Source: an uncultured Bacteroidales bacterium
Lineage (GTDB): Bacteria > Bacteroidota > Bacteroidia > Bacteroidales > Paludibacteraceae
NCBI GenBank assembly: GCA_902799555.1
Contig: CADCBB010000022.1
Span: forward strand, 1 to 41,244
DNA: 41,244 nt
Reading direction: 5' to 3'
Shown: positions 1,223 through 39,745 of the stretch, piece after piece
Numbering within the stretch: position 1 is the stretch's first letter
Layout of the letters: each line of letters begins with the position of its first letter
Translations under genes and position numbers: made by a program
Notes under the pieces: generated by a model
What the model saw: only the letters and a program-made list of their open reading frames with translations
Told to the model about the DNA's origin: nothing
Databases searched by the model: none

Positions 1223-2146
1223 ATGTTAGGAATAATTATCAATCCCAAATCAGGCAAAAAAGCTTTCCGCGCGCAGCGCATATACTTATGGAAATTATTG
1301 CGTAAACGGCATATGCCTTTTGCGTATCGTGTGACCAAGTTTGCCGGTCATGCTACCGAGTTGGCCCGTGAGTTGGTCGAGAAAGGGTACGACGAGATCC
1401 TGATTCTCGGCGGCGACGGTACGCTCTCCGAAGCCATCAACGGCATCATGCGGGCGAACCTCACGGCACAGCAACGGGCGAAGATACAAGTGGGTCTCAT
1501 GCCCCGCGGTACAGGGAACGACTGGGGACGCTACTGGAATTTGGATAAGCGGTTCAAAGAGAGTCTGCGCCGCTTCTTCGAGGGCGAAGGTCATCCCATC
1601 GATATCGGTTGTGTCACCTATTGGCGAAACGGCATCGAGCATCACCGCTATTTCATCAACTCCGTCGGTTTTGGTGTCGATCCGCTCTGCTGCCAGAAAG
1701 CGGAGAACCTCAAGTACTATATCGGTTCGCATTCGATCAACTACCTCTTCGGTCTCATCGCCGCCATCATCCAACATAAGGCGCAGCATATGATCCTCAA
1801 CGTAGACGGCAAGCAGGCTGTGGACGATCGGCTCTTCACGATGAATATCGGTAACGGTCCTTTCTCCGGTGGCGGTATCCGGCAAAACCCCGAAGCGGAC
1901 CCTACCGACGGTGTGTTCCATACGATGTTCATCAAGAAACCGACCTTCAAGCAGGTCATAGAGGCCCTGCCTAAGTTATACAACGGACGACTGACCGAGC
2001 TGCCTTTCGTTTATCCTATCGTGGGACGCGAGATAGAGATGATCTACCGCAAGCATATCCTCTTTGAGGCAGACGGTATCCTGGAGAATATCATCGGCCC
2101 GTGCAAGATAACTTGTATCCATAACGCATTGCAGTTTAGGTGCTGA
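1223..2146 (+). CDS. Diacylglycerol kinase family lipid kinase (YegS/BmrU-like)
   Basis: Predicted to phosphorylate a lipid such as diacylglycerol with ATP at the membrane. The 307-residue protein has the DAGK catalytic signature: INPKSG near 6-11, GGDGT at 63-67 in ILGGDGTLSEAINGI, and PRGTGNDWGR at 94-103. The ATG at 1223 is chosen because the promoter -7 box ends at 1199; an in-frame GTG at 1169 lies upstream of the expected transcription start. Its stop codon (2144-2146) lies inside a 7-nt repeat array that fills the gap to the next gene. The substrate cannot be told from sequence. Its place at the head of a sugar-salvage operon may be only transcriptional. Confidence 0.85.
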   Translation: MLGIIINPKSGKKAFRAQRIYLWKLLRKRHMPFAYRVTKFAGHATELARELVEKGYDEILILGGDGTLSEAINGIMRANLTAQQRAKIQVGLMPRGTGNDWGRYWNLDKRFKESLRRFFEGEGHPIDIGCVTYWRNGIEHHRYFINSVGFGVDPLCCQKAENLKYYIGSHSINYLFGLIAAIIQHKAQHMILNVDGKQAVDDRLFTMNIGNGPFSGGGIRQNPEADPTDGVFHTMFIKKPTFKQVIEALPKLYNGRLTELPFVYPIVGREIEMIYRKHILFEADGILENIIGPCKITCIHNALQFRC

Positions 2147-2167
2147 ATACTGAATACTGAATACTGA
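2143..2167. repeat. Heptad array, unit CTGAATA
   Basis: Three and a half perfect copies of CTGAATA. The stop codon of the lipid kinase and the first base of the amgK start codon fall inside it. TGA recurs at 2144, 2151, 2158 and 2165, so all three frames are stopped. Confidence 0.95.
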
Positions 2168-3093
2168 TGGCTATCCAACAGCAAGGATCCAATAGAGTCT
2201 ATACCCGAGAAACGGACGCGAATGGTCGTTCCGTCATTCGTGTCGTAGGTACGAACCGCGATGAGAACCGTGCCTTCATTTATATGGCGCGGCATTTTCA
2301 TGCCCTCGGCCTGCCGGTGCCGGAGCTCTATGAGGTGAGCGAAGATGAGATGACTTATACCCAGGAGGACCTTGGCGACACCATCCTCTTTGATCATCTG
2401 GATAACACCTTATATATCGAACGCGCTATGCGCGCACTCGCGCACGTACAGGTAGAGGGTGCACGGGATTTCGACTGGTCCGTTTGCTTCCCTGTGCCGA
2501 CGATGGACGAACGGTCTATCCGTTGGGACCTCAATTATTTCAAATACTGCTTCTTGAAGGGCACCAAGATCGAGTTCTCCGAACCCAAACTCGAGGACGA
2601 TTTTGACCGCATGGTGCAGGTCATTCTGGCGCAGCCGGCAGAGACGTTCCTATATAGAGATTTTCAGAGCCGCAATGTCATGATCAAGGACGATCAGCCG
2701 TACTTCATCGATTTTCAGGGTGGTCGGCGTGGTCCTACCCAATACGATGTCGCCTCTTTCCTCTGGCAAGCCAAAGCGAACTTCTCCCAGGCGCTGCGCG
2801 AACAGATGATAGACGCCTATCTCGATGAACTGGAAAAAATCTCCAATCTTCAATCTTCAATCTTCAATAAGGACGCATGGCGTGCCGCTCTCCCGCATTT
2901 TGTCCTCTTCCGCACGTTGCAGGTCCTCGGCGCCTATGGCTATCGAGGCTATTTCGAGCGCAAACCTCATTTCCTGGAGTCTATCCCGCTCGCCCTCAAG
3001 AACCTGCACGAACTCTTCGAAAAGAATACGGATTTACAAAACGAATACCCTTATTTGTATGCTATCAGTAACGATCTACTCTTTCTCCTTTAA
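2167..3093 (+). CDS. amgK: Phosphotransferase of the APH fold, probably anomeric MurNAc/GlcNAc kinase (AmgK-like)
   Basis: Kinase-fold protein of 308 residues. The Brenner-type catalytic loop is YRDFQSRNVM at 163-172 (Asp165, Asn170; Tyr replaces the usual His at 163) and the metal-binding Asp is in IDFQGG at 181-186. AmgK phosphorylates the anomeric carbon of MurNAc/GlcNAc, and its partner MurU makes the UDP-sugar, bypassing de novo synthesis. The murU-like gene two places downstream supports this reading; without that neighbour it would only be called APH-family. Residues about 225-234 (ISNLQSSIFN) are encoded by a heptad array. The last 35 bp overlap the next gene. Confidence 0.75.
   Translation: MAIQQQGSNRVYTRETDANGRSVIRVVGTNRDENRAFIYMARHFHALGLPVPELYEVSEDEMTYTQEDLGDTILFDHLDNTLYIERAMRALAHVQVEGARDFDWSVCFPVPTMDERSIRWDLNYFKYCFLKGTKIEFSEPKLEDDFDRMVQVILAQPAETFLYRDFQSRNVMIKDDQPYFIDFQGGRRGPTQYDVASFLWQAKANFSQALREQMIDAYLDELEKISNLQSSIFNKDAWRAALPHFVLFRTLQVLGAYGYRGYFERKPHFLESIPLALKNLHELFEKNTDLQNEYPYLYAISNDLLFLL
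2840..2867. repeat. Heptad array inside amgK, unit TCTTCAA
   Basis: Four units: TCTCCAA then TCTTCAA three times, exactly 28 nt. It is read through in frame as part of the C-terminal lobe of the kinase, with no stop codon on the coding strand. Confidence 0.95.
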
Positions 3094-3463
3094 ACGAGGT
3101 ATCCCTGCGGACGCTTCCGGTAACGGAGGCGGGTATGTCTTCGACTGCCGTTCTACCCATAACCCGGGTAAGTACGACGAATACAAGACCCTTACCGGCC
3201 TCGATCAACCCGTCATTGATTTTCTCGAGAAGGACGGTGAGATCCTTACTTTCTTAGACTCGGTCTATGCCCTTGTCGATCATCATGTGGAGCGGTTCAT
3301 CGAACGGGATTTTGAGCATATGCAGGTCGCTTTCGGTTGTACCGGCGGGCAGCATCGATCGGTTTATAGTGCGGAGCATTTGGCGAAGCATCTGAAAGAG
3401 CGATATGAGGTGAAGATTCATCTGATTCATAGAGAAAGGGGCATTGACCGATGGTTGGAATGA
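3059..3463 (+). CDS. RapZ C-terminal domain protein (stand-alone)
   Basis: A 134-residue protein with the RapZ C-terminal signatures GNGGGYVFDCR (21-31) and FGCTGGQHRSV (92-102). In Enterobacteria this domain senses glucosamine-6-phosphate and binds the small RNA controlling GlmS; the N-terminal ATPase-like domain of RapZ is missing here. The ATG at 3059 overlaps amgK by 35 bp and the 3' end overlaps murU by 13 bp, implying tight coupling. From memory, related Bacteroidales have the kinase and this domain as one chain, so the +1 frame break may be a natural split, a frameshift, or a sequencing error. A link between amino-sugar sensing and MurNAc salvage is inference. Confidence 0.8.
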   Translation: MLSVTIYSFSFKRGIPADASGNGGGYVFDCRSTHNPGKYDEYKTLTGLDQPVIDFLEKDGEILTFLDSVYALVDHHVERFIERDFEHMQVAFGCTGGQHRSVYSAEHLAKHLKERYEVKIHLIHRERGIDRWLE

Positions 3464-4164
3464 TCTTTGCCGCGGGCTTGGGTACGCGCCTCAAACCCCT
3501 CACCGATACCATGCCGAAGGCCCTGGTGCCCTTAGCCGATAAACCGCTCCTCCAATGGCAGGTGGAGAAGCTCCACGATGCCGGTATCACCGATATCATC
3601 GTCAATGTGCATCATTTTCCCGATCAGATCATTGATACCGTTCGGGCGAATCAAGGATGGGGCTGTAACATTACGATCTCCGATGAACGCGACATGCTGC
3701 TTGATACCGGTGGAGGACTGAAAAAAGCCATTCGGCTTTTAATGGACAATGAACCCATCCTCGCATGCAATGTAGATATCTTATCCAATATTGATATCCG
3801 CGCGCTGATAAAGGCGTACGAACAAACAGGTGTTTCTCAACTGGTCGTCTCCGATCGTCAAACCCAACGCTATCTCTGTTTTGATGCGCAAAATACGCTC
3901 TGCGGATGGACGAATATCAAGACCGGTGAACTCAAAGGCAAAGACGGTCGGCATCTGGCTTTTTCCGGCATGCAGATCCTGAGTCCCGAAGCGCTGACCC
4001 TCCTCCGGCAGATGCCCCGGGATAAATTCTCCCTGATCGATTTCTATCTGCACGTCATGGACAAGCTTCCCCTACAAGCCTATATCCCGTCTGACTATCA
4101 GATGATGGATGTCGGCAAAATCGACCAGATAGAGGAGGCAGAACGCTTTGCAGAAAGCCTATAA
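3451..4164 (+). CDS. murU: Sugar-1-phosphate nucleotidyltransferase, MurU-like
   Basis: Transfers a nucleotidyl group to a sugar-1-phosphate; with AmgK it would give UDP-MurNAc. The 237-residue protein starts with the nucleotide-binding signature FAAGLGTRLKPLT (6-18) followed by MPKALVPLADKPLL, has the metal-binding Asp in CNVDILSN near residue 110, and ends with a short C-terminal segment. It lacks the acyltransferase domain of GlmU. Overlap with the RapZ-like gene and the upstream kinase favour MurU over a generic GDP-mannose or glucose-1-phosphate enzyme, but the substrate is inferred from context. It is the last gene before a terminator-like hairpin. Confidence 0.75.
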   Translation: MVGMIFAAGLGTRLKPLTDTMPKALVPLADKPLLQWQVEKLHDAGITDIIVNVHHFPDQIIDTVRANQGWGCNITISDERDMLLDTGGGLKKAIRLLMDNEPILACNVDILSNIDIRALIKAYEQTGVSQLVVSDRQTQRYLCFDAQNTLCGWTNIKTGELKGKDGRHLAFSGMQILSPEALTLLRQMPRDKFSLIDFYLHVMDKLPLQAYIPSDYQMMDVGKIDQIEEAERFAESL

Positions 4165-4165
4165 A

Positions 4166-4198: not shown

Positions 4199-4205
4199 AA
4201 AAAAA

Positions 4206-4340: not shown

Positions 4341-4341
4341 C

Positions 4342-7641: not shown

Positions 7642-8127
7642 ATGGCTAAATACATTGTAATGGCAGAAGAAGGCGAACATGTTTTGCTGGATAAGTTAAA
7701 AGAGCAAATCGGACTCGATTTGCAGGATGCCGAACTCATTTATACGGGCGTAGGCGCGATAAATATCATTCGGAGTCTGCAGCATTTGGATCGTGAGGCA
7801 GAGCTTTTTAATATCGGCTATGCCGGTAGTGCCAATTTTGATTTGGGTACCTGGGTGGAAGTAACCGAAGTACGCCTCAACCATCCGAATGTCACCTATC
7901 AGGAGCCGGAGTTGAAAGTGGAAAGTTTAAAGTTGAAAGGTGCTATCAATGCGATCTGCTATACCAATACGGATTTTGTATTGGCATCGGACTATAAGGA
8001 CTGTGTCTTCGATATGGAACTGGCGTTTATTGCATCGCTGGGATTCAAGCATCTGCATAGCCTCAAGTACGTCAGCGATAACTTGAGTCTGCATGCCTAT
8101 CACGAATTAACCAACGGCGTACAATGA
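7642..8127 (+). CDS. Nucleoside phosphorylase / MTA-SAH nucleosidase-like protein
   Basis: A 161-residue member of the PNP/UDP phosphorylase fold. Visible features are YTGVGAINI (34-42, the phosphate/ribose loop), FNIGYAGS (56-63), the FDMELAFIA segment (123-131) matching the family's catalytic ME-A helix, and YVSDN (143-147) with the purine-contacting Asp. It is shorter than typical MTAN (about 230), mainly in the middle. Residues about 90-99 (ELKVESLKLK) come from a heptad array. It overlaps rlmI by 4 nt (ATGA), so the two are translationally coupled. The substrate is uncertain. Confidence 0.78.
   Translation: MAKYIVMAEEGEHVLLDKLKEQIGLDLQDAELIYTGVGAINIIRSLQHLDREAELFNIGYAGSANFDLGTWVEVTEVRLNHPNVTYQEPELKVESLKLKGAINAICYTNTDFVLASDYKDCVFDMELAFIASLGFKHLHSLKYVSDNLSLHAYHELTNGVQ
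7911..7938. repeat. Heptad array inside the nucleosidase gene, unit GTTGAAA
   Basis: GTTGAAA, GTGGAAA, GTTTAAA, GTTGAAA: 28 nt. The third unit would place TGA in frame at 7927-7929 if it were GTTGAAA; a T there makes it TTA (Leu). Confidence 0.95.
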
Positions 8128-9380
8128 CTACTGTTTATCTTAAACCGCATAAAGAAGAGTCCCTCAAGCGTTTTCACCCTTGGGTCTTCTCAGGGGCGCT
8201 TGCGAAGGTCGTCTTAGACGCTTCGCATAAGGCGTCCGAGCCGCAAGAAGGAGAACTCGTCTGCGTGCGTTCGGCTGCCAACGAGGTCTTGGGCGTCGGA
8301 CATTGGCAGATCGGTTCGATCGCCGTACGTATTCTGGCCTTCGGGCTCGAAGAACTGCCTGCCGGTTTTTGGAACGAGCGGATCCGTGCTGCATACAAAA
8401 TGCGTGAATCATTGGGATTGGTAAGAAATGACAAATCACAAATTACAAATTACAAATCCCTCAACAACACCTTCCGTCTTATTCACGGTGAAGGCGATTT
8501 TCTGCCGGGACTCATCGTCGATGTCTATGCCGATACCGCTGTGATACAAGCCCATTCCGTAGGCATGCATGTGCATCGGAACGAGATCGCGCAAGCCCTG
8601 CTGGACGAAGTGCCGCAAGTAAAGAACGTCTATTATAAATCCGACGACACCCTGCCGTTTAAGGCGGCTATTGAGGGCGAAAAAGTGGGATATCTGATCT
8701 CCAATCTCCAATCTCCAATCTCCAATTCTGAAGAGTTCTGGTCTCTCGAGAACGGTCTCTCTTTCCGCATCGACTGGTTGAGAGGGCAGAAGACCGGTTT
8801 CTTTGTGGATCAACGGGAAAACCGAGCCTTGGTAGAACGGTACGCGAAGGATAAGGACGTGCTGAATATGTTCTGCTACACCGGCGGCTTCAGTCTCTAT
8901 GCTTTACGCGGCGGTGCGAAAACCGTGGACTCGGTCGATGTGAGTCAGAAAGCGATCGATCTGGTCAATGTTAATGTCGCGAAGAATTTCCCCGAGGCGA
9001 CCAATCACACTGCCGTCGCAGCTGATGCGTTCGAGTACCTGAGCGCGCAAAAGAATGCCGGTAAGACCTATGACCTGATCATCCTGGACCCGCCGGCTTT
9101 TGCCAAGCATCGCGATGCCGTCAAGAATGCCTTACGCGGCTATCAGCGCATCAATGCGAAGGCGATTGAGATGATTCGTCCGGGAGGTATCTTGTTTACC
9201 TTCTCCTGTTCGCAGGCGGTGGATAAGGAAGCATTCCGTCTGGCGGTCTTCAGTGCGGCGGCACAGGTAGGCCGAAAGGTGCGGATCTTGCACCAACTAC
9301 ATCAGCCACAAGATCATCCGATCAATATTTATCACCCCGAAGGCGAATACTTAAAAGGATTAGTTTTATACGTAGAATAA
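8124..9380 (+). CDS. rlmI: Class I SAM-dependent rRNA methyltransferase, RlmI-like
   Basis: Likely 23S rRNA m5C methyltransferase of 418 residues. An N-terminal PUA domain (1-75, starting TVYLKPHKEESLKRFHPWVF) is followed by a central domain and a Rossmann methyltransferase domain: LNMFCYTGGFSLYAL near 247 (SAM binding), DPPAFAKH near 322 and the catalytic Cys in FSCSQAVD near 361. Two 28-nt heptad arrays are read in frame, encoding about residues 103-112 (DKSQITNYKS) and 192-201 (SNLQSPISNS); neither falls in a motif. It starts on the ATGA of the nucleosidase and is followed after 1 nt by the exonuclease. Exact target base is inferred from the family. Confidence 0.88.
   Translation: MTTVYLKPHKEESLKRFHPWVFSGALAKVVLDASHKASEPQEGELVCVRSAANEVLGVGHWQIGSIAVRILAFGLEELPAGFWNERIRAAYKMRESLGLVRNDKSQITNYKSLNNTFRLIHGEGDFLPGLIVDVYADTAVIQAHSVGMHVHRNEIAQALLDEVPQVKNVYYKSDDTLPFKAAIEGEKVGYLISNLQSPISNSEEFWSLENGLSFRIDWLRGQKTGFFVDQRENRALVERYAKDKDVLNMFCYTGGFSLYALRGGAKTVDSVDVSQKAIDLVNVNVAKNFPEATNHTAVAADAFEYLSAQKNAGKTYDLIILDPPAFAKHRDAVKNALRGYQRINAKAIEMIRPGGILFTFSCSQAVDKEAFRLAVFSAAAQVGRKVRILHQLHQPQDHPINIYHPEGEYLKGLVLYVE
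8431..8458. repeat. Heptad array 1 in rlmI, unit ACAAATT/C
   Basis: ACAAATC, ACAAATT, ACAAATT, ACAAATC: 28 nt, read in frame, no coding-strand stop. Confidence 0.95.
8698..8725. repeat. Heptad array 2 in rlmI, unit TCTCCAA
   Basis: Four identical TCTCCAA units, 28 nt, read in frame. Differs from the amgK unit (TCTTCAA) by one base. Confidence 0.96.
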
Positions 9381-17685: not shown

Positions 17686-18481
17686 AGTAACCATATTAGG
17701 CTGCGGAAGCGCCAAGCCGACGAAGACGACCTCGCCTTCGGCGCAACTGGTGGATATAGGCGACAAACGATTCCTGGTGGATTGCGGGGAAGGCGTGATC
17801 CTGACCATGCAGAAACTGGGTATTCGTACGGCGCGTCTGTATAACATCTTCATCTCGCATCTGCATGGAGACCATTGTTTCGGCCTCATCGGTTTACTCA
17901 CTACGCTGGGCATGCTCAAGCGTACCCAACCCATGCATATCTACGCGCAGCCGGATTTGGAGAAACTGCTTCAGCCGCTCTTGGACTATCATGCCAACGA
18001 TCGCGAGTATGATATCATCTTCCATCCGATTAATCCGCGCAAACATGAGGTGATCTATGAAGATCGCACGGTGAGCGTGGAGACGATCCCGTTGAAGCAT
18101 GGTGTGCCTACTTGCGGTTTCCTCTTCAAAGAGACCCGTCGGATCAAGCACGAAGACGGTTCGTTGGAGTACGTGACGACCAAACGGTATGCCTATTGTT
18201 CGGATACCCAGTACAATGAGAAGATCGTGCCGATCATCGAAGGCGTAGAAGCGCTCTACCATGAGTCCACCTTCCTTAATGAACACGGTGCACGCAGCAA
18301 AGAGGTGAAGCACTCGACAGCCGCTGAGGCCGCTACGATCGCTAAGTTGGCGAATGTAGGTAAGCTCATTTTAGGACACTATTCCGCGCGTGTCGAAGAC
18401 CATAGCCTCTTCCTCAAAGAAGCCAAACCGATATTTGATAACACCATCCTCGCGGAGGAAAATGATGTAATTGAGATCTGA
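17672..18481 (+). CDS. rnz: Ribonuclease Z
   Basis: Metallo-beta-lactamase-fold endonuclease that trims tRNA 3' ends, 269 residues. Zinc ligands are in SHLHGDHCFGL (His63, His65, Asp67, His68), with YCSDTQYN and LILGHYSARVED supplying the later Asp and His. The N-terminal ILGCGSAKPTKTTSPSAQLV and FLVDCGEG match the family. It is somewhat shorter than the usual 300 residues. None of the tRNAs here except perhaps tRNA-Cys encodes CCA, so 3' maturation by RNase Z plus CCA addition is required. Start overlaps DUF4954; the stop overlaps the radA ATG. Confidence 0.95.
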   Translation: MSEAKVTILGCGSAKPTKTTSPSAQLVDIGDKRFLVDCGEGVILTMQKLGIRTARLYNIFISHLHGDHCFGLIGLLTTLGMLKRTQPMHIYAQPDLEKLLQPLLDYHANDREYDIIFHPINPRKHEVIYEDRTVSVETIPLKHGVPTCGFLFKETRRIKHEDGSLEYVTTKRYAYCSDTQYNEKIVPIIEGVEALYHESTFLNEHGARSKEVKHSTAAEAATIAKLANVGKLILGHYSARVEDHSLFLKEAKPIFDNTILAEENDVIEI

Positions 18482-19845
18482 TGGCAAAAGCAACGATACA
18501 ATATGTCTGTTCGTCCTGTGGAGCCAAAGCTCCGCAGATGCTCGGTCGCTGTCCGGTGTGCGGAGAGTGGGGCACGTATGAAGAGGAGGTGATCGAAAAA
18601 GGTCGTGGTGTCGAAGTATCGAGAACTCGAAATATCGGAAGTAATCTTCCTCAACGTCTCCAAGATGTGGTAGCGACGAACGAGATGCGGATCGACATGT
18701 GTAATGGCGAACTGAACCGTGTCTTGGGCGGAGGTCTCGTGCCCGGCAGTTTAGTGCTCTTGGGCGGTGAACCCGGTATCGGCAAATCGACCCTCGCGCT
18801 CCAAGTGCTGATGCAGATGGGAGAGCGGAAAACGTTCTATGCATCGGGCGAAGAGAGTGCCAAACAACTCAAGTTACGGGCTGAGCGCTTGGCAGGAAAT
18901 GCAGAGAACCTCTATATATCCGCCGAGACATCGCTTGAACGTATCTTGGAGCAGGTCAAAGCCTTAGAACCCGAGATTGTGGTCATCGACTCGATCCAAA
19001 CCGTAGGTACCGATGCTATAGACGCTTCCATAGGTTCATTGAGTCAAGTACGAGAGTGCGCCGCACGTATCCTCGATTTTGCCAAGACGCGTAACATACC
19101 GTTCATCATCATCGGTCATATCAACAAAGAGGGTTCGCTGGCCGGACCCAAAGTGCTGGAACATATCGTGGATACCGTCCTGCAGTTCGAGGGTGACCAG
19201 CAGTATATGTACCGTATCCTGCGTGCACAGAAGAACCGTTTCGGTTCAACCGCCGAGTTGGGTATCTACGAGATGCGACAGGACGGTTTGCGTGAAGTGA
19301 CGAACCCGTCTGAGCTCCTGCTTTCTACGGCGCGCGAAGGACTTTCCGGTATCGCTATAGCAGCTGCCGTTGAAGGAGTACGACCGTTCCTGATCGAGGT
19401 ACAAGCACTTGTCTCCTCCGCAGCTTACGGCACACCGCAACGTTCCTCCACCGGTTTTGACGGCAGAAGGTTGAATATGTTGTTGGCAGTGCTGGAGAAA
19501 CGGGTTGGGTTCAAACTGCTGCAGAAAGATGTATTCCTCAATATCGCCGGTGGTCTGCGGGTGCAAGACCCGGCTATCGACTTAGCGGTATTAGCTGCGG
19601 TGTTGAGCAGTAACATGGATATAGCGCTTGACCCGAGTACATGCCTCTGCGGTGAAGTGGGCTTGGCAGGTGAGATCCGTTCGGTCAATCGTATTGAACA
19701 GCGTATTGCGGAGGCGCAGAAACTGGGTTTCAAGCGTATCCTGATTCCGGCGGAGCAGAAGATAGACAGTAAACGTTTTACAATAGAGATAGTGCCCGTT
19801 AAACGGGTAACGGATGCCTTTAGATTATTGATTAAGGGGAATTGA
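18481..19845 (+). CDS. radA: DNA repair protein RadA
   Basis: Recombination helicase-like ATPase that processes branched intermediates, 454 residues. Order of parts: zinc finger C10-C13-C24-C27 (CSSCGAKAP...CPVCGEW), RecA-like core with Walker A GGEPGIGKST (95-104), Walker B in EIVVIDSIQT, the RadA-specific KNRFGST near 251, and a Lon-protease-like C-terminal domain (SSTGFDGRRLNMLLAVL onward). Start codon shares a base with the rnz stop. Its stop codon (19843-19845) lies in the first unit of a heptad array. Confidence 0.97.
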   Translation: MAKATIQYVCSSCGAKAPQMLGRCPVCGEWGTYEEEVIEKGRGVEVSRTRNIGSNLPQRLQDVVATNEMRIDMCNGELNRVLGGGLVPGSLVLLGGEPGIGKSTLALQVLMQMGERKTFYASGEESAKQLKLRAERLAGNAENLYISAETSLERILEQVKALEPEIVVIDSIQTVGTDAIDASIGSLSQVRECAARILDFAKTRNIPFIIIGHINKEGSLAGPKVLEHIVDTVLQFEGDQQYMYRILRAQKNRFGSTAELGIYEMRQDGLREVTNPSELLLSTAREGLSGIAIAAAVEGVRPFLIEVQALVSSAAYGTPQRSSTGFDGRRLNMLLAVLEKRVGFKLLQKDVFLNIAGGLRVQDPAIDLAVLAAVLSSNMDIALDPSTCLCGEVGLAGEIRSVNRIEQRIAEAQKLGFKRILIPAEQKIDSKRFTIEIVPVKRVTDAFRLLIKGN

Positions 19846-19868
19846 AAATTGAAAAATGAAAATTGAAA
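19841..19868. repeat. Heptad array at the radA / DUF6089 junction, unit ATTGAAA
   Basis: ATTGAAA, ATTGAAA, AATGAAA, ATTGAAA: 28 nt. TGA in each unit covers three frames; the first is the radA stop. The single changed base in the third unit makes the ATG (19856) that starts the next gene. Confidence 0.95.
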
Positions 19869-27522: not shown

Positions 27523-28400
27523 ATAAGAAAGTATTTTGGATTATTGTAGTTGTCTTAGCTGTCATCATTGCCGGCTTGGTCTATTGGAATATCAGCCAGC
27601 ATCAGGAGATGAACGAGATGGTCGAGCAGATGACCATTGAGAAAGAGGAATTGGAAGAAGAGTACGAAGACCTGGCCATTCAGTTCGACGGATACCAGCA
27701 GATGGATATCCGCAATGACTCGCTCCAGGATCTGCTTAGCCGTGAGCAACAACGCGTGCAAGACCTGCTGGAAGAACTGCGTCAGACCAAGGCTTCCAAT
27801 GCGCGCCGTATATCCGAACTCAAGAAAGAACTGGCTACCGTGCGTGAAGTCATGAAAGGATACGTGCGTCAAATCGACTCCCTCAATGCGACCAATGCCC
27901 GCCTCACCGAAGAGAACATGCTGGTCAAAGAGGAGAACAAACAAGTTAAGGAGCAGAACTCTCAACTCTCTACGCTTAACTCGCAACTCTCCGAGACCGT
28001 CATTCGCGCCTCCATGCTGGAGGTGACTTCTTGCACGCTCACAACGCTCAACAAGAACGATCGTAAGACCAAGATGGCAAGTCATATCCGGAAACTGCAG
28101 TTCGATTTTGTGATCGCGAAGAATATCACCTGTACGCCCGGACTCAAGGACCTCTATGCCCGCGTCATTACGCCGGCAGGAGACCTGATGGGAGAAGAGG
28201 AATCCAAACTGTTTGCCTTTGAGAACGGCGAAATACCCTATTCGTTGGTTCAACAAATCGAATACGCCGGCGAAGCGTACCAAGGTACCTGTTATTGTCC
28301 TCTTGCAGAAAACGAGACCGTACAGTCTGGTTACTATACCATCGATTTCTTCTGCGATGGCAACCTGATTGGTTCTTTCCCCTTCCAGATAAAAAAATAA
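27519..28400 (+). CDS. Membrane-anchored coiled-coil protein of unknown function
   Basis: A 293-residue protein: one N-terminal membrane helix (KKVFWIIVVVLAVIIAGLVYW, about 3-23), a long coiled coil (about 28-165, rich in Glu, Gln, Leu), and a C-terminal globular part (about 170-293) ending GNLIGSFPFQIKK. Probably anchored in the inner membrane with the coiled coil in the periplasm. Part of the coil (NSQLSTLNSQLS, about 147-158) is encoded by a degenerate heptad array. It overlaps murF by 4 nt and is the last gene of the long rightward run. Confidence 0.75.
   Translation: MNKKVFWIIVVVLAVIIAGLVYWNISQHQEMNEMVEQMTIEKEELEEEYEDLAIQFDGYQQMDIRNDSLQDLLSREQQRVQDLLEELRQTKASNARRISELKKELATVREVMKGYVRQIDSLNATNARLTEENMLVKEENKQVKEQNSQLSTLNSQLSETVIRASMLEVTSCTLTTLNKNDRKTKMASHIRKLQFDFVIAKNITCTPGLKDLYARVITPAGDLMGEEESKLFAFENGEIPYSLVQQIEYAGEAYQGTCYCPLAENETVQSGYYTIDFFCDGNLIGSFPFQIKK
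27957..27991. repeat. Heptad array in the coiled-coil gene, unit AACTCTC
   Basis: AACTCTC, AACTCTC, TACGCTT, AACTCGC, AACTCTC: five units, two of them degraded. Read in frame as NSQLSTLNSQLS. Confidence 0.9.
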
Positions 28401-31031: not shown

Positions 31032-31817
31032 ATGATCGATACGCATTGTCATATTGATGAAGAGGCTTTTGATGCCGACCGCGAAGAAGTCATTGCCTGC
31101 CAACAGGAGAGTGGGGTGGAACGCATGATTGTGCCCGGTGTCAACGCGGCATCGATAGAAACGGTCATGCAGGTCTGTCGTGCGCATCCCGGCTATTGTT
31201 ATCCGGCTTTGGGCTTGCATCCGGAAGATGTCAAAGGCGATTGGCAGGAACAATATGTCATCATTGAGAAAGCCATCCGTGAGCATCGGAACGAATTGGT
31301 CGCGATAGGTGAGATTGGCTTGGACTATTATTGGGACAAGACCTTCAAGGATGAGCAGCAGGAAGTCTTGCGGCGACAACTAATCCTTGCTCGCGAATTG
31401 GACTTACCGGTCATCTTGCACAATCGAGAAGCGACAGAAGATATCCTACGTATTGTAAAAGAAATCGTAAATCGTAAATCGTCCAATCGTCAATTAACTG
31501 GTGTTTTTCATTGCTTCAACGGAAGTCGAGAAACGGCACAACAGATTTTGGATATGGGGTTCTATCTTGGGATAGGCGGTGTGTTGACGTTCAAAAATAG
31601 CAAATTGGCGGAGAAACTGGATGTAGTACCGTTGGAACGTATCTTGCTGGAGACGGACGCACCCTATATGGCTCCTGTTCCCCATCGTGGAGAACGCAAT
31701 GAGAGTCGCTTCATGATTCATGTCGCAGAACGGCTCGCACAAGTGTATAATTGCCCCGTTAAATACGTCATTGAGCTCACAAGTGCCAATGCTCGACAAC
31801 TTTTTGCAATAAAATAA
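31032..31817 (+). CDS. tatD: TatD family metal-dependent hydrolase
   Basis: TIM-barrel deoxyribonuclease-like protein, 261 residues. Metal ligands are in MIDTHCHID (His5, His7), AIGEIGLDYYWD, VILHNRE, GVFHCFNGS and LLETDAPYMAP. TatD proteins act in DNA repair and 3'-5' RNA/DNA trimming. The segment EIVNRKSSNRQ (about 144-154), a surface loop before the GVFHCF strand, is encoded by a heptad array. The start is 1 nt after the junction array that follows queA. Confidence 0.93.
   Translation: MIDTHCHIDEEAFDADREEVIACQQESGVERMIVPGVNAASIETVMQVCRAHPGYCYPALGLHPEDVKGDWQEQYVIIEKAIREHRNELVAIGEIGLDYYWDKTFKDEQQEVLRRQLILARELDLPVILHNREATEDILRIVKEIVNRKSSNRQLTGVFHCFNGSRETAQQILDMGFYLGIGGVLTFKNSKLAEKLDVVPLERILLETDAPYMAPVPHRGERNESRFMIHVAERLAQVYNCPVKYVIELTSANARQLFAIK
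31462..31490. repeat. Heptad array inside tatD, unit AAATCGT
   Basis: Three AAATCGT units, then an extra C and CAATCGT. The same unit class as the queA/tatD junction 430 bp upstream. A perfect fourth unit would put TAA in frame at 31482-31484; the sequence is TCC instead. Confidence 0.93.
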
Positions 31818-32183: not shown

Positions 32184-33005
32184 ATGAAAAAAATTTTTGC
32201 AACTCTGACAGTGCTGGCTATGCTGACTTTCGGCAGCGCAGTTATGATGGCACAAGAAGAAGCAGCTGCTGTTGAAGAGGCTGCTGTTGAACAAGTAGAT
32301 GAGGCTGCTCCTGCAGCTGAAGAAGTAGCTGAGGCTCCTGCTGAGGAAGCCGGCGGCTTAGTAGCGCTCCACAAAACGCTGAAGACCAAATTTATCGAAG
32401 GTGGTGCCGGCTTCATGGCTTTGACCCTCGTTACTCTCGTATTCGGTCTCGCACTCTGTATCGAGCGTATCATTTATCTGTCCTTGAGCAAAACGAACAC
32501 CAAGGAGTTGCTCGCTAATATTGAGGCTGCTCTGAAGAACGGTGGTATTGAGAAAGCTTTGGAGGTTTGCCGTAACACCCGTGGTCCGGTGGCTTCTATC
32601 TTCTATCAAGGTCTCAGCCGCTATGACGAAGGTATCGACGTAGTTGAGAAGACCGTCGCTTCCTATGGTGGCGTTCAGCTTGGTCTCTTGGAGAAGAACC
32701 TTTCTTGGATCACCCTCTTCATCGCTATCGCTCCGTCTCTCGGATTCTTGGGTACCATCATCGGTATGATCGAGGCATTCGATAAGATTCAGCAAGTAGG
32801 TGATATCTCGGCTACCGTTGTTGCCGGTGGTATCAAGGTCGCTCTGTTGACTACCCTCCTTGGTTTGATTATTGCTGTTGTTCTTCAGTTGTTCTACAAC
32901 TACATCCTTAGCCTCGTTGAGGGTCTGGTAAATGAGATGGAGGACAGCTCGATTAGCCTGCTCGATATCGTAGTAGAGTACGATGCTGCACAAAAAAAGA
33001 AATAA
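32184..33005 (+). CDS. exbB: MotA/TolQ/ExbB proton channel family protein
   Basis: Inner-membrane proton channel subunit that energises TonB or Tol systems, 273 residues. It has a signal-like N-terminus (MKKIFATLTVLAMLTFGSA), a 35-residue acidic Ala/Glu-rich segment (about 25-58), then TM1 (MALTLVTLVFGLALCIERII), the LGFLGTIIGMIEAF motif near 187-200 in TM2 and TM3 (ALLTTLLGLIIAVVLQLFY). The acidic extension is unusual compared with E. coli ExbB. First of four co-directional genes; the stop is followed at once by a heptad array. Confidence 0.92.
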   Translation: MKKIFATLTVLAMLTFGSAVMMAQEEAAAVEEAAVEQVDEAAPAAEEVAEAPAEEAGGLVALHKTLKTKFIEGGAGFMALTLVTLVFGLALCIERIIYLSLSKTNTKELLANIEAALKNGGIEKALEVCRNTRGPVASIFYQGLSRYDEGIDVVEKTVASYGGVQLGLLEKNLSWITLFIAIAPSLGFLGTIIGMIEAFDKIQQVGDISATVVAGGIKVALLTTLLGLIIAVVLQLFYNYILSLVEGLVNEMEDSSISLLDIVVEYDAAQKKK

Positions 33006-33033
33006 GCTGACGGCTGAATGCTGAATGCTGAAA
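33006..33033. repeat. Heptad array after exbB, unit GCTGAAT
   Basis: GCTGACG, GCTGAAT, GCTGAAT, GCTGAAA: exactly 28 nt, starting on the base after the exbB stop. TGA in every unit. Confidence 0.95.
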
Positions 33034-33065
33034 ACTATTGTTTAATCTAAACAATTTTGTGCAAT

Positions 33066-33545
33066 ATGAAAAACTATAAAATGATTCCTAAGATTGCCCT
33101 CTGGTCGCTGCTGGGTTTGGGACTCGTGTTCATCGCGTTGTTCTTCCTCGGTGGCTCCAACGGTAGTCTCGAGGTAGCCGGTGATTTCCTGGATATTCCT
33201 CGTTTCACCGATGCTTTCCTCATCTGGGTCTACATCCTTGTTGGATTGGTAGTCCTGATTACGCTGGCTGTTGTATGCGTAGAGTTTGCCAATAACTGGA
33301 AAACCAACCGCCGCAAAGCGTACATGACGCTTGGCGTAGTAGGTGGCTTCATCGCTTTGGCGCTCATCTGCTGGTTCCTCGGTAGCCCGGAGAAAATCAA
33401 TATCATCGGTTACGAAGGTACGGATAATGAAGGCGCTTGGGCTCAATTGGCTGACGCTGTTATCTATGCTTGCTACTTCCTCTTCATCGCTACTATCGGT
33501 ACGATGATCTGGGGATACGTACATACTAAAAAACTGTCGAAGTAA
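33066..33545 (+). CDS. Small integral membrane protein of the exb cluster
   Basis: A 159-residue protein with about four membrane helices (near 11-29, 52-70, 86-105 and 131-151), starting MKNYKMIPKIALWSLLGLGL. No catalytic motif. A protein of this kind is commonly encoded between ExbB and ExbD in Bacteroidota, so an accessory role in the proton-driven complex is likely but unproven. ATG at 33066 is used; an upstream non-ATG codon in frame is less likely. Confidence 0.75.
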   Translation: MKNYKMIPKIALWSLLGLGLVFIALFFLGGSNGSLEVAGDFLDIPRFTDAFLIWVYILVGLVVLITLAVVCVEFANNWKTNRRKAYMTLGVVGGFIALALICWFLGSPEKINIIGYEGTDNEGAWAQLADAVIYACYFLFIATIGTMIWGYVHTKKLSK

Positions 33546-33557
33546 ATCACATTTATC

Positions 33558-34136
33558 ATGGCAAAGAAAGTCCCACAGATCAACGCCAGCTCTATGGCCG
33601 ACATCTCGTTCCTGTTGCTGATTTTCTTCTTGGTGACCACCTCTATGGATGTGAACCAAGGACTGGCTCGCCGTCTGCCTGCGCCTATTCCGCCTGACCA
33701 GAAAGTGGAAGATAAGGATATCAACAAGCGCAACCTGCTGGTAGTGAAGATCAACTCTGCCAACCAGCTCATGGTGCAAGGCCAGTTGATGGATGTGAAG
33801 CAACTGAAGGAGAATGCAAAGAAGTTCATCAAGAACGAAGAGAATGCGGACTATTATCCGAAGCTTGTGGAAGAGGATTTCGGTGCTCCGTTCGGTGTAC
33901 TCAAATACACCAAGGATCACGTTATCTCCGTCCAGAACGACGTGGATACCCGGTATCAGGCATATCTCGATGTTCAGAACGAACTCGTAGCGGCATATAA
34001 CGAATTGCGTGAAGAATGCGCGCAGAAGTATTTCCACAAGAGCTACAACGAACTCGACGAGGATCAACAGAAAAAGATCCAAAAGATCTATCCTCAGAAG
34101 ATTTCCGAGGCTGAACCTAAAAATTACGGTAACTAA
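33558..34136 (+). CDS. exbD: ExbD/TolR family biopolymer transport protein (first copy)
   Basis: A 192-residue inner-membrane protein with one helix (ISFLLLIFFLVTTSM, about 16-30) carrying the conserved Asp15 in SMADISFLLL that takes part in proton flow, and a periplasmic domain (about 31-192). The C-terminal region (YNELREECAQKYFHKSYNEL) is longer than in E. coli ExbD and predicted helical. It follows the membrane protein gene by 12 nt and precedes the second exbD by 1 nt. Confidence 0.92.
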   Translation: MAKKVPQINASSMADISFLLLIFFLVTTSMDVNQGLARRLPAPIPPDQKVEDKDINKRNLLVVKINSANQLMVQGQLMDVKQLKENAKKFIKNEENADYYPKLVEEDFGAPFGVLKYTKDHVISVQNDVDTRYQAYLDVQNELVAAYNELREECAQKYFHKSYNELDEDQQKKIQKIYPQKISEAEPKNYGN

Positions 34137-34137
34137 C

Positions 34138-34643
34138 ATGGCAAAGATTCGTAGAAATGAGAAACGTGAGATGCCGGCGCTCAATACGTCGTCTCTCCCT
34201 GATATTATCTTCATCTCAATACGTCGTCTCTCCCTGATATTATCTTCATGCTGCTCTTCTTCTTCATGTCTGTTACGTCAATGAAGGAAGTAAGCTATAA
34301 GGTGCAGTTCCAAAACCCGCAGGCTTCGGAGCTCACCAAGCTGGAGAATAAATCCCTTGTGCGTTATATCTACGTTGGTACGCCGACGGCTGAGTTCCGT
34401 AAGCAATACGGTGCTGAGACGCGTATCCAGCTGAATGACCAATTCGCAGAAGTGAAGGAGATCGGCGAGTATATCGTCAATGAGCGTTCCTCCATGAAGG
34501 AGAGCGACCAAGGTCTTATGACCGTCTCCATCAAGGCTGATAAGGAGACCAAGATGGGGGTCATCGCGGACATCAAGCAGGAGCTCCGTCGTGCTTATGC
34601 ACTCAAGATCAGCTATGCTGCTACACAACGCACCAGTTACTAA
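34138..34643 (+). pseudogene. exbD: Second ExbD-like gene, frame broken by a 35-bp tandem duplication
   Basis: The reading frame from ATG 34138 (MAKIRRNEKREMPALNTSSL, then PDIIF) is shifted by a perfect 35-bp tandem repeat; the rest of the protein (MLLFFFMSVTSMKEVSYKVQ onward) continues in another frame from 34248. Deleting one copy gives an intact 156-residue ExbD with the conserved Asp in LPDIIFMLLFFF, and the corrected length is an exact multiple of three. Bacteroidota exb clusters normally carry two exbD genes, so the original is expected to be functional. A real mutation and an assembly error are both possible. Confidence 0.85.
34180..34249. repeat. 35-bp perfect tandem duplication
   Basis: 34180-34214 equals 34215-34249 base for base (starts CTCAATACGTC, ends ATCTTCAT). 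It sits exactly at the membrane helix of the second exbD. Confidence 0.98.
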
Positions 34644-37705: not shown

Positions 37706-38598
37706 ATTAATACGCGATTAAACTCTTTCGGTACAGGACTCTCAAAACGTACGGTTTTCTCCGTTACAGGATGAATAAACGCCAGCACTTTAGCATGCAG
37801 ACAAAGTCGATCTATCGGGCTATACTCATTACCATGCCCGTACTTTCGGTCGCCTACAACCGGACAGCCTTTGCTCGCCAGATGCACACGGATCTGGTTC
37901 GTTCGTCCCGTTTCCAGATGCAATTCTACCAGCGAATACTGCCCGTCTGCTGAAGAACGAAGGGTCTTATAATTGGTAATAGCGATATCACCTCCATCGT
38001 CCACCGGCGACGAATAAACGACCGCATTGCGCTTGTCTTCGGTCAACCAAGTCGTGATCTTGCCTTCTGCGGGTTTCAACACGCCCTCTGCCAACGCGAT
38101 ATAGGTGCGCTCCGTGACCAATTCCCGCCAGTACTCCCGCATATAATGCTGCAGTTCCTCCGAACGTGCAAACACCAGTAAACCGCTCGTCTCTCGATCC
38201 AACCGATGTACCACATAGATACCTGCGCGCGCGTTCTGTTTCTTAACGTACGCGCGTAGGATAGAGTAGGCGGTCGTCTCGCTGCTACCCGGCGTTGCCG
38301 CCACAGTCAGCAGACCCGGTTGCTTGTTCACAACAATCAGATCATCGTCTTCATACACGATCTTCAACTTCGGGTGCGTCAACTGACTGTTTCCTCTACC
38401 CGAACTGACGGTCACTACATCGCCTTTCTTCAATGCAAAATCATGGCGTGTCTGAATGGCATTACCTACCTTCACACGACGCTGACCCAATAACTGCTTC
38501 ACCGACGACTTCGCCATGCCTCCCATCTTCGCCAATAGGAAGTCCATCAACTGCGCCGGCTCTGCCACACGCAATATTGTATCTTGTTTTCTAACCAT
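37702..38598 (-). CDS. RluA family pseudouridine synthase
   Basis: Converts uridine to pseudouridine in rRNA or tRNA, 298 residues. N-terminal S4-like RNA-binding region (about 12-65), then the catalytic HRLDRETSGLLVFA block with Asp134 at 131-144, and the C-terminal LHLETGRTNQIRVHLASKG. It belongs to the RluC/RluD/RluA group; the target cannot be decided from sequence. It lies between the PnuC-like gene (adjacent, separated only by an 8-nt-period repeat) and the esterase. Confidence 0.93.
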   Translation of the reverse strand: MVRKQDTILRVAEPAQLMDFLLAKMGGMAKSSVKQLLGQRRVKVGNAIQTRHDFALKKGDVVTVSSGRGNSQLTHPKLKIVYEDDDLIVVNKQPGLLTVAATPGSSETTAYSILRAYVKKQNARAGIYVVHRLDRETSGLLVFARSEELQHYMREYWRELVTERTYIALAEGVLKPAEGKITTWLTEDKRNAVVYSSPVDDGGDIAITNYKTLRSSADGQYSLVELHLETGRTNQIRVHLASKGCPVVGDRKYGHGNEYSPIDRLCLHAKVLAFIHPVTEKTVRFESPVPKEFNRVLI

Positions 38599-38619
38599 TT
38601 AACGTTTTAACATTTTAAC
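38597..38619. repeat. Short array of period 8 at the PnuC-like / RluA junction
   Basis: On the gene strand GTTAAAAT, GTTAAAAC, GTTAAAT: TAA in each unit; one copy is the stop of the upstream gene and the last one runs into the RluA ATG. Confidence 0.85.
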
Positions 38620-39357
38620 CCAGCCGAGGTTCTCGTCTGTCGTGCCCTTGATCCATGCGAGACCCGCCATCGAGTTGATCACCAAGAAGAAGGTGAATAG
38701 CACGATCGAGAACACATTACCTAATATAATAAACAGCCCGATTCCTGCCACGCTGTATATGAACCAGTAGATCCAACTGTCCGTCTTGCGGTAAATCAAC
38801 CAGTAGTTTGCCAGGAACGACGACGAGATCAGCAATCCGTTCAGGATCTTAACCGGCATGTTGTCCGTAAGCCCATCGTGCATCAACGCAAAAGTGGACA
38901 GCACGTAGTCACCCGCTGTGATGATCACTAACATCGCGATCGACATGACGAGACGCGGAGTGTCGAGGAACTTGGGTTCGAAACTCGCGCCTCCCTCTTC
39001 TTTGTTCCGACTCCATTTATAGATGCTCATCATCTGGAACGGAATGAATACCAGGAAGAACAGGAACGCGCTATCGTATCCTCCTTGCAGGATAAACTGT
39101 ATGCCCAGCAAGATCGACATGATAATACCGGCATAGAAACCCGTGTAGTTATGCGGGTCACGGATCGTAAGGATATATGCGACGCCAATGATAGAAGCCG
39201 GAATACCGACTACCCATGCAGGATCGTGCCATTTCAATAATGTCATCGACGGAAAGATCATCTCCGCCAACCATAGGAGCCCCAATAATGCTCCAAACAA
39301 TACCATTGAGATAATTGTGTTGCGCCCTAATGCGCGCCATAGTTGTGTGTTTTTCAT
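38599..39357 (-). CDS. PnuC-like nicotinamide riboside transporter family protein
   Basis: A 252-residue inner-membrane protein with about seven hydrophobic segments. The family's features are visible: FIPFQMMSIYKWSRNKEE near 105-122 and ANYWLIYRKTDSWIYWFIYS near 184-203, including the W-x-Y-W pattern after the conserved Asp. PnuC proteins take up nicotinamide riboside for NAD synthesis by facilitated diffusion. Other vitamin-type Pnu carriers are alternatives. Its leader is a heptad array and no promoter lies between it and the L31 terminator, so expression may depend on read-through. Confidence 0.72.
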   Translation of the reverse strand: MKNTQLWRALGRNTIISMVLFGALLGLLWLAEMIFPSMTLLKWHDPAWVVGIPASIIGVAYILTIRDPHNYTGFYAGIIMSILLGIQFILQGGYDSAFLFFLVFIPFQMMSIYKWSRNKEEGGASFEPKFLDTPRLVMSIAMLVIITAGDYVLSTFALMHDGLTDNMPVKILNGLLISSSFLANYWLIYRKTDSWIYWFIYSVAGIGLFIILGNVFSIVLFTFFLVINSMAGLAWIKGTTDENLGWVKMLKR

Positions 39358-39360
39358 AAA

Positions 39361-39388
39361 TCTTCAATTTTCAATCTTCAATCTTAAA
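39361..39388. repeat. Heptad array in the leader of the PnuC-like gene, unit TCTTCAA
   Basis: TCTTCAA, TTTTCAA, TCTTCAA, TCTTAAA on the + strand (28 nt). On the gene strand this is TTGAAGA-like, with a stop in each unit, ending 3 nt before the ATG. Confidence 0.95.
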
Positions 39389-39390
39389 TA

Positions 39391-39426
39391 AAAATAAGAG
39401 CGGACACGATCGTCCGCTCTTATTTT
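39391..39426 (-). terminator. Terminator of the rpsF-rpsR-rplI-rpmE unit
   Basis: 15-bp arms AAAATAAGAGCGGAC (39391-39405) and GTCCGCTCTTATTTT (39412-39426), loop ACGATC. Symmetric A/T flanks allow use in both directions. Confidence 0.92.
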
Positions 39427-39434
39427 GCTCCGCA

Positions 39435-39705
39435 TTACTTGCGAGTGCGGTTGCCGTAGCGAGACATAAATTTGTCCACACGACCTGCGGTGTCCACCAG
39501 TTTGGACTTACCGGTGTAGAACGGGTGACTCGTGTTCGAGATCTCCAACTTGATCAGCGGATACTGAACGCCGTCAATCTCGAACGCCGTCAATCTCAAT
39601 CGTGTCCTTGGTAGCGGCTGTAGAGCGGCTGAAGAACTGAGTACCGTCAGACATATCTTTGAAAACTACTACGCGGTAGTTCTCGGGATGAATTCCTTTT
39701 TTCAT
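39435..39705 (-). pseudogene. rpmE: 50S ribosomal protein L31 (type B), frame broken by a 16-bp tandem duplication
   Basis: The gene starts [20 protein letters not shown] and runs 43 codons to a premature TGA after [10 protein letters not shown]. Removing one copy of the 16-bp repeat restores an 84-residue protein that continues [20 protein letters not shown] and ends with SRYGNRTRK, the normal length and C-terminus. The type B form lacks the zinc-binding Cys residues. As L31 is part of the ribosome and the rest of the gene shows no decay, a recent mutation or an assembly error is more likely than an old pseudogene. Confidence 0.9.
39566..39597. repeat. 16-bp perfect tandem duplication in rpmE
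   Basis: GAACGCCGTCAATCTC occurs at 39566-39581 and again at 39582-39597. It shifts the L31 frame by one. Confidence 0.98.
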
Positions 39706-39713
39706 AAGTCTTT

Positions 39714-39745
39714 CTTTAAACTTTAAACGTTAAACTTTAAACTTT
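39714..39745. repeat. Heptad array at the rplI / rpmE junction, unit CTTTAAA
   Basis: CTTTAAA, CTTTAAA, CGTTAAA, CTTTAAA, CTTT: four and a half units. On the gene strand each unit (TTTAAAG) contains TAA. Confidence 0.95.

What the first reader, a model, noticed from the sequence alone, without database searches (positions are those of the whole stretch)
2143..39745. Thirteen dispersed arrays of about four 7-nt units, each with a different unit sequence
Seen directly: arrays at 2143, 2840, 7911, 8431, 8698, 19841, 19907, 27957, 30995, 31462, 33006, 39361 and 39714. Period is always 7 and length is usually exactly 28 nt, but the unit differs (CTGAATA, TCTTCAA, GTTGAAA, ACAAATT, TCTCCAA, ATTGAAA, CTTTCAC, AACTCTC, TAAATCG, GCTGAAT, CTTTAAA). 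What is conserved is period and copy number, not sequence. Simple slippage would not fix copy number near four or spread related units. This suggests a dedicated generating process or selection for a 4x7 architecture. They resemble low-complexity stretches I have seen in other Bacteroidales proteins; I know of no description of a mechanism.
Basis: seen in the sequence. Interest (0 to 1): 0.86.

Follow-up and report, generated by a model that had tools for sequence, protein, structure and literature searches.

The report
Swapped four-by-seven repeat patches in genes
An uncultured Bacteroidales bacterium carries many tiny DNA patches, each a 7-letter word repeated about four times, and a close relative often has a different repeated word at the same spot, which ordinary copying slippage does not readily explain.

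Summary
Twelve of 13 reported arrays are real period-7 arrays; 27957 is conserved coding sequence. In 841 kb of the window's genome, apparently Paludibacteraceae, lag 7 gives 120 arrays against 1 in simulated sequence, and 68 against 4 inside ORFs after synonymous-codon shuffling. Lengths peak at 31 nt: four units plus three bases, or five copies of a 3-nt core, most often AAT/ATT. Inside arrays, cores vary 2-3%, spacers 6-14%. In a relative with about 93% identical flanks, 63 array sites were located: 29 hold the same array, 21 a different one, 13 none. Different units are about as dissimilar as random pairs; near-identical-unit pairs keep length in 14 of 17. Only 7 of 134 array-free gene ends have an array in the relative. 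Near queA, 90 period-7 arrays from 34 relatives and the window fall at 21 positions. Local slippage alone does not explain this. I favour single-step writing by inaccurate, core-primed repeated copying at permissive sites; no enzyme was linked. Heptamer excess in prokaryotes is known. Fixed-site wholesale swapping with a core-and-spacer plan did not surface in nine open-access searches.

The parts
2143..2167 (+). period-7 array CTGAATA, 25 nt; from the end of ORF 1169-2146 to the ATG at 2167
2838..2868 (+). period-7 array AATCTTC, 31 nt; inside ORF 2167-3093, at the end of its APH domain match
7910..7939 (+). imperfect period-7 array AGTTGAA, 30 nt; inside ORF 7642-8127
8426..8457 (+). period-7 array AAATTAC, 32 nt; inside ORF 8124-9380 (similar to E. 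coli YccW), in a stretch largely missing from that solved relative
8697..8726 (+). perfect period-7 array ATCTCCA, 30 nt; same ORF, in a poorly aligned stretch
19840..19868 (+). period-7 array AATTGAA, 29 nt; end of ORF 18481-19845; not at the same place in L103
19906..19936 (+). perfect period-7 array CCTTTCA, 31 nt; near the N-terminus of ORF 19856-20566 (DUF6089 / outer-membrane barrel match); not in L103
30991..31029 (+). period-7 array around TAAATCG with one longer step; queA end / tatD start; the unit is TAACCCG in L103 and others elsewhere
31462..31494 (+). period-7 array AAATCGT; inside tatD, at a place where two solved relatives are 5 residues shorter; same in L103, none in L042
33006..33032 (+). 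period-7 array GCTGAAT, 27 nt, directly after the stop of ORF 32184-33005 (MotA/TolQ/ExbB match); CTGA-core arrays with other spacers in several relatives
39359..39389 (+). period-7 array AATCTTC, 31 nt, directly upstream of the start of minus-strand ORF 38599-39357 (NMN transporter match)
39714..39747 (+). period-7 array CTTTAAA, 34 nt, directly downstream of the stop of the minus-strand ribosomal protein L9 ORF (39748-40191)
38598..38619 (+). period-8 array TTTAACNN, 22 nt: the same kind of object with another spacing
27957..27991 (+). NOT an array: conserved coding sequence with a weak 7/21-nt echo

Best explanation
Each patch is written in one event at a site that tolerates extra sequence (a protein loop, a gene end, a leader). 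A 3-nt core, most often AAT/ATT, is realigned about four times with a step of 7 nt (8 in a minority), and each round adds four spacer bases plus the core. The synthesis is inaccurate in the spacer but must match at the core, because the core re-primes the next round. The new patch replaces or refills what stood there before. Once made, it behaves much like ordinary sequence, with few unit gains or losses, until it is deleted or overwritten. Shown: core-and-spacer anatomy, bounded copy number, preferred ends, recurrent sites with unrelated contents in relatives, rarity of unit gain/loss between one pair of genomes. Inferred: single-step birth, core-primed iterative copying, inaccurate synthesis, replacement in place rather than loss plus new insertion. 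Unknown: the polymerase and the template.
For: Copy number: runs of one triplet at spacing 7 count 207/80/53/10/2 for 3/4/5/6/7 cores in the own sample and 202/64/78/9/4 in G061. Six other spacings give 113-154 runs of three, 1-6 of four and none of five or more. Ends: within a unit family the first-base phase agrees in 341 of 889 pairs and the last in 314 of 889; 127 expected. Start triplet AAT 62 of 230 against 20 expected. Within arrays, core positions vary 2.2-2.8%, spacer 6.3-14.1%; simulated detection bias gives a 1.4-1.8-fold contrast. Changes since the split show no significant core bias, so much of the spacer variation is plausibly older, perhaps from birth. Replacement: 63 located sites, 29 same, 21 different array, 13 none. 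Period-7 pairs with different units (10 of 27) lie at distances like random pairs; near-identical-unit pairs keep length in 14 of 17. Gene ends without an array: 7 of 134 have one in G061, against 21 of 34 non-shared array sites (all contexts, not only gene ends). Near queA, 90 period-7 arrays at 21 positions in 34 relatives plus the window. Codon-preserving control 68 against 4.
Against: No enzyme, template or intermediate was found. Unit-step changes do occur: one period-8 array has four copies in G061 and one in the window's genome (+24 nt), one same-unit period-7 site differs by 14 nt (seen from both directions), and others differ by 14 and 22 nt. The 'different array' class therefore includes a few length variants of one unit (by eye 1 of 21 and 2 of 20). 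At least 4 of the 13 'none' sites hold degenerate or remnant repeats. Runs of exactly three cores exceed other spacings by about 70 in each genome, so shorter arrays exist. Arrays up to 70 nt occur in other genus members and one of 15 copies in PalB. Ordered variant words shared between loci in G061 (54 pairs against a shuffle mean of 18.1, 0 of 500) point to copying of whole arrays, which core-primed birth alone does not predict. The simulation never reached the observed overall variation (at most 4.6% against 5.7%).
Confidence: 0.38

Rival explanations
1. Replication slippage with a preferred step of 7 nt and a length-dependent bias (short arrays grow, long ones shrink), giving a preferred length near 31 nt; content is renewed by unit turnover.
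For: Heptanucleotides were reported as the commonest long simple repeats in most prokaryotes, and slippage tied to a polymerase footprint was proposed (Mrazek 2007, seen only as cited in PMC4679880 and PMC4692102). In cyanobacteria, differences between TAACTGA sets of two Cyanothece strains are mostly in 7-nt steps (PMC4679880). Unit-step differences exist here. Near 33026 several relatives keep a CTGA core while spacers differ.
Against: Pairs with different units at one site are about as dissimilar as random pairs, and 14 of 17 near-identical-unit pairs keep length. Sites recur while contents differ. Arrays alternating 7 and 8 nt recur at several loci. Unit repertoires differ between two close genomes for 4 of the 5 units tested, not expected from purely local slippage.
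Confidence: 0.2
2. Whole arrays are tiny mobile elements: a 31-nt array is copied from locus to locus, giving species-specific bursts such as AATTAAA in G061.
For: AATTAAA arrays: 22 of 133 in G061 against 1 of 120 in the own sample, Fisher p=4e-6. The same ordered pattern of unit variants recurs at unrelated loci (54 pairs against 18.1, 0 of 500 shuffles). Preferred ends. Insertion-like differences of 27-35 nt at three sites.
Against: By eye, no consistent target duplication, terminal inverted repeat or flank motif in the 22 AATTAAA arrays (no statistical test). The own sample shows no significant word sharing (5 against 2.8, 72 of 500). Units are diverse. No consistent reverse transcriptase or Y1 transposase.
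Confidence: 0.24
3. The arrays are functional binding sites (DNA or RNA) for a protein that needs four to five cores at fixed spacing.
For: Regular spacing and a favoured core (AAT/ATT in 34 of 65 and 58 of 91 runs of five or more cores). 59 of 243 period-7 arrays overlap a gene end, by my arithmetic about nine times the share of such positions, and there the sense strand is A>T in 50 of 59.
Against: 114 of 243 period-7 arrays lie in gene interiors. Unit and even spacing differ at one site between species. Cores are not significantly more conserved than spacers after the split (little power). The gene-end bias is expected if sense-strand TGA/TAA in a unit ends the reading frame.
Confidence: 0.07
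4. Assembly artefact: short-read assemblers truncate or invent short tandem repeats.
For: The named relatives with many arrays are draft metagenome assemblies by title, and lengths mostly stop near 34 nt in the two genomes sampled most.
Against: 29 of 63 arrays are found again at the orthologous site in another assembly; arrays lie inside open frames that align to solved proteins; other draft assemblies hold longer arrays.
Confidence: 0.02

Closest known systems
Long simple sequence repeats with heptanucleotide units in prokaryotes (Mrazek et al. 2007; paper not held; seen only as cited in PMC4679880 and PMC4692102)
   Same: The 7-nt unit is the most over-represented class; scattered through the genome.
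   Different: Here most arrays stop near five cores, the unit differs from locus to locus, nearly half lie inside genes, and close relatives hold different content at the same site, which the cited slippage idea does not cover.
TAACTGA direct repeats of Beggiatoaceae, some cyanobacteria and five Bacteroidetes (PMC4679880; abstract and sections 3 and 10 read)
   Same: [quoted passage not shown] in two Bacteroidetes the repeats are missing at the same place in a close relative.
   Different: One fixed unit, in the main genome mostly intergenic just upstream of start codons; here many units and many genic sites.
GGGAATC / GGGGA(T/C)T repeats of Xanthomonas and Nostoc (PMC4692102; abstract and passages read)
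   Same: Over-represented heptamer arrays; most lie between the same genes in two close Xanthomonas species but vary much in length and sequence.
   Different: One G-rich unit tied to G-quadruplex formation; here many mostly AT-rich units.
Small dispersed repeats of cyanobacteria, 21-27 nt, often within tandem heptamers (Elhai et al. 2008; recalled, no copy held)
   Same: Very short, dispersed, mobile-looking sequences of similar size.
   Different: As recalled, they are folded sequence families; here mainly period, core and copy number are shared.

Membership tests
Heptanucleotide simple sequence repeats made by slippage | Over-represented tandem repeats with a 7-nt unit | tested here: met
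   120 against 1 simulated; 68 against 4 codon-preserving
Heptanucleotide simple sequence repeats made by slippage | Copy numbers that fall steadily from low values and differ by whole units between relatives | tested here: not met
   Peak at 31 nt; excess level to five cores, then a drop; 14 of 17 near-identical-unit pairs of equal length. A few unit-step changes exist
Single-unit heptamer families (TAACTGA, GGGAATC) | One genome-wide unit sequence, mainly intergenic | tested here: not met
   Many units; 114 of 243 in gene interiors
Phase-variable contingency repeats | Frequent unit gain or loss switching a gene | tested here: inconclusive
   Few unit-step changes between two species; variation within one strain could not be tested
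Miniature mobile elements | Dispersed copies of one sequence in a genome | tested here: inconclusive
   Yes for AATTAAA in G061, not significant in the own sample
Miniature mobile elements | Terminal inverted repeats or target-site duplications | tested here: inconclusive
   None consistent by eye in 22 AATTAAA arrays with 14-nt flanks; no statistical test made
Reverse-transcriptase systems (diversity-generating elements, retrons, group II introns) | A reverse transcriptase present wherever the arrays are | tested here: inconclusive
   RVT_1 in 3 of 4 genomes; none in G063, which has arrays (L039) but is a 2.0-Mb draft of unstated completeness
Ku-dependent end joining | Ku present | tested here: not met
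   0 of 5 genomes (the control search rang in B. subtilis)

The most novel reading that the evidence does not exclude
A bacterial process that writes short tandem arrays de novo: a 3-nt core primes about four rounds of inaccurate 7-nt (or 8-nt) synthesis, and the product overwrites the previous array at permissive positions in genes. It would be a telomerase-like way of renewing loop and leader sequences across a genome, distinct from slippage, transposition and retroelement-based diversification.
Probability: 0.28. Interest if true: 0.88.

Novelty: new variant of a known kind. Interest (0 to 1): 0.72.

Why it matters
Why 7-nt repeats dominate long simple repeats in prokaryotes is an old observation usually put down to slippage. 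These genomes offer many events at aligned sites. They show a bounded copy number, a 3-nt core that varies less than its spacer, and content that is swapped wholesale. That makes the generating process testable, and it would be a continuing source of new peptide loops and leaders, in housekeeping genes too.

Tried and rejected
Rejected: the array at 27957 (conserved coding). A fixed length of 28 nt (mode 31). Local slippage as the main source of new content. Binding sites under selection (little power). Loss of mismatch repair (MutS_V domain in 5 of 5 genomes). Ku-based end joining (0 of 5). Y-family polymerases are in 5 of 5, including the sparse isolate genome G064, so they do not discriminate. 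RVT_1 is in 3 of 4 genomes and Y1_Tnp over its cut-off in 1 of 4, so neither is consistent. High density as a mark of this family alone: the Bacteroidaceae/Prevotella loci are about as dense as the more distant Paludibacteraceae loci. Led nowhere: inheritance of the local core between different arrays at one site (mean distances 3.04 within sites against 3.19 between, pairs at distance 2 or more). Literature: nine answered searches; one search listed 12 papers, judged from the listing only. Two papers were opened (PMC4679880: outline and two sections; PMC4692102: passages). The first core-run control was a single Markov simulation, which overestimates runs of three at spacing 8, so six other spacings were used instead. 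In one search the printed label 'distinct units (d>=2 apart)' is wrong: it counts distinct consensus strings.
Full report
WHAT WAS CHECKED. The window is contig 22 of an 82-contig, 2.34-Mb draft genome. Related named records are uncultured Bacteroidales, many called Paludibacteraceae, from ruminant guts and also pig and horse. The window's own host and name were not seen. L103 aligns to the window at about 91% DNA identity. Of the 13 listed arrays, 12 are period-7 arrays of 21-34 nt. The one at 27957 is coding sequence, identical in L103 and recognisable without an array in the 15 relatives displayed of 19 found.

CHANCE. In 400 kb of the same genome, exact lag-7 runs number 39 against 1.0 in order-3 Markov sequence. 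With mismatches allowed, an 841-kb sample holds 120 lag-7 arrays against 1, plus 43 at lag 8, 20 at 9, 14 at 11, and 12-15 at each of 14, 15, 16 and 21. Shuffling synonymous codons within each gene leaves 4 lag-7 arrays where 68 are observed (the stretch L186 had no gene calls and was left out). Densities per 10 kb, my arithmetic: own 1.4, G061 1.7, nearer relatives 1.9, farther relatives 0.8, Bacteroidaceae/Prevotella loci 0.7, and the isolate Phocaeicola barnesiae 0.1 (5 in 400 kb). High density is thus not confined to one family.

ANATOMY. Lengths peak at 31 nt: 99 of 120 arrays are 24-34 nt and 9 of 120 are 36 nt or longer. The 4.5-copy bin is the largest in each of five groups. Within families of one unit, first and last bases fall at the same phase in 341 and 314 of 889 pairs, against 127 expected (23 of 253 arrays, shorter than 24 nt or holding N, were dropped). 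Arrays start with AAT in 62 of 230 against 20 expected. The first three positions vary 2.2-2.8% inside arrays and the other four 6.3-14.1%. Simulating the same detection on uniformly mutated arrays gives a contrast of 1.4-1.8-fold, though the simulations never reached the observed overall variation. The plan is core(3)-[spacer(4)-core(3)]x4. Runs of one triplet at spacing 7 count 207, 80, 53, 10, 2 for 3 to 7 cores in the own sample, and 202, 64, 78, 9, 4 in G061. Six other spacings give 113-154 runs of three, 1-6 of four and none of five. The excess is roughly level up to five and then falls 5-9 fold. At spacing 8 the own sample gives 144, 35, 18, 1, 2 and G061 142, 18, 5, 2, 0, plus one longer run. 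Some arrays alternate 7 and 8 nt (AAATGGT-AAATGACC) at several loci and in several species.

PLACE. Of 243 period-7 arrays in the two genomes (10 near stretch ends dropped), 114 are in gene interiors, 59 overlap a gene end, 43 are intergenic, 12 overlap a start and 15 are in the first or last 60 nt of a gene. Genes here are mechanical ORF calls, covering 92%. In tatD and in the YccW-like gene the arrays encode stretches that are shorter, missing or poorly aligned in solved relatives. At gene ends the sense strand is A-rich in 50 of 59, as expected if TGA or TAA inside the unit ends the frame.

CHANGE BETWEEN RELATIVES. G061 is the genome of L103. Of 200 own arrays (lags 7, 8, 14, 15, 21) with full flanks, 63 had their site located in the part of G061 that I held. 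Of these, 29 hold the same array (96.4% identical, flanks 93.2%), 21 a different array, 13 none. The reverse search gives 28 (93.8%, flanks 93.1%), 20 and 13 of 61 (the two directions share sites). By eye, 1 of the 21 and 2 of the 20 are length variants of one unit, and at least 4 of the 13 'none' hold degenerate or remnant repeats. Period-7 pairs with near-identical units keep their length in 14 of 17 and 13 of 15. Those with different units (10 of 27 and 11 of 26) lie about as far apart as random pairs. Own gene ends without an array have one in G061 in 7 of 134 cases, against 21 of the 34 non-shared array sites; the latter include gene interiors, so the comparison is rough. Around queA, 153 arrays of seven periods fall at 37 positions. 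The 90 period-7 arrays, from 34 relatives and the window, fall at 21 positions, 15 of them used by three or more species. Of the within-site pairs, 81 of 222 have near-identical units; the rest are about as different as units at different sites (3.04 against 3.19). After the split, cores and spacers changed at rates not significantly different (10/493 and 17/561, p=0.33, 38 pairs).

DISPERSAL. G061 has 22 AATTAAA and 7 TAACCCG arrays where the own sample has 1 and 0. The own sample has 9 AAAAGTG and 9 AAGATTG arrays against 1 and 1; a fifth unit tested, AAAGGTG, does not differ (7 against 4, p=0.36). In G061, ordered words of unit variants are shared between loci more than shuffling allows (54 against 18.1, 0 of 500); in the own sample they are not (5 against 2.8, 72 of 500). 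Copying of whole arrays therefore probably contributes at least in G061.

READING. Local slippage explains neither the wholesale swaps nor the bounded copy number, though unit-step changes occur (+24 nt as three 8-nt units; 14-nt differences at two sites; 22 nt at one). My preferred account is single-step writing by core-primed, inaccurate, repeated copying at permissive sites, with some copying of whole arrays. The enzyme is unknown: Ku is absent from 5 of 5 genomes, Y-family polymerases and MutS domains are in 5 of 5, a reverse transcriptase is in 3 of 4.

AGAINST THIS READING. Longer arrays exist in other members of the genus and family. Runs of exactly three cores exceed other spacings by about 70 in each genome. 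The core contrast partly reflects detection. The replacement counts rest on one pair of genomes. The relatives with many arrays are draft metagenome assemblies by title.

KNOWN WORK. Heptamer over-representation and a slippage hypothesis are in print (Mrazek 2007 as cited in PMC4679880 and PMC4692102), as are single-unit heptamer families. [quoted passage not shown] Rehm et al. (PMC4692102, passages) note that most repeats lie between the same genes in two Xanthomonas species with extensive length and sequence variation. The fixed-site swapping of unrelated units and the core-and-spacer plan were not found in the nine answered searches.

Noticed in passing
L119-L138 and L184-L203 (own genome sample): Period-8 arrays, many built of near-palindromic units (CGTCATGA, TAACGTTA, TCTCGAGA) or GTTAAANN, often 4-5 copies; 43 in 841 kb.
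   Followed up: partly
window 40879-40911; L120:4523, L120:7112, L120:10055: Period-9 arrays of CTAGATNNT/CCTAGGNNT; the L120 ones look as if they encode the hydrophobic part of signal peptides.
   Followed up: no
L132:10150, L133:4622, L187:2296, L196:5815, L199:9821: Period-11 (some scored as 22) arrays such as ACCTACTAATC, TTCCCATAGGA, ATTAGTAGGTT; 28 of 33 lag-11 arrays in the two genomes are intergenic.
   Followed up: no
L113 near window 39375; L053 near window 39730: Long inverted-repeat-like patches at array sites, with TTTGA-type repeats on one side and TTTCAAAC-type repeats on the other around a GTTAAC centre.
   Followed up: no
L133:6806, L133:7175, L134:13611; G061 site matching L184:1730: Period-16 arrays of CTGTAAGACCGCTTCG, also as the content of an array site in G061.
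   Followed up: no
window 34180-34249: Perfect tandem duplication of a 35-nt unit, spanning the start of minus-strand ORF 33042-34214.
   Followed up: no
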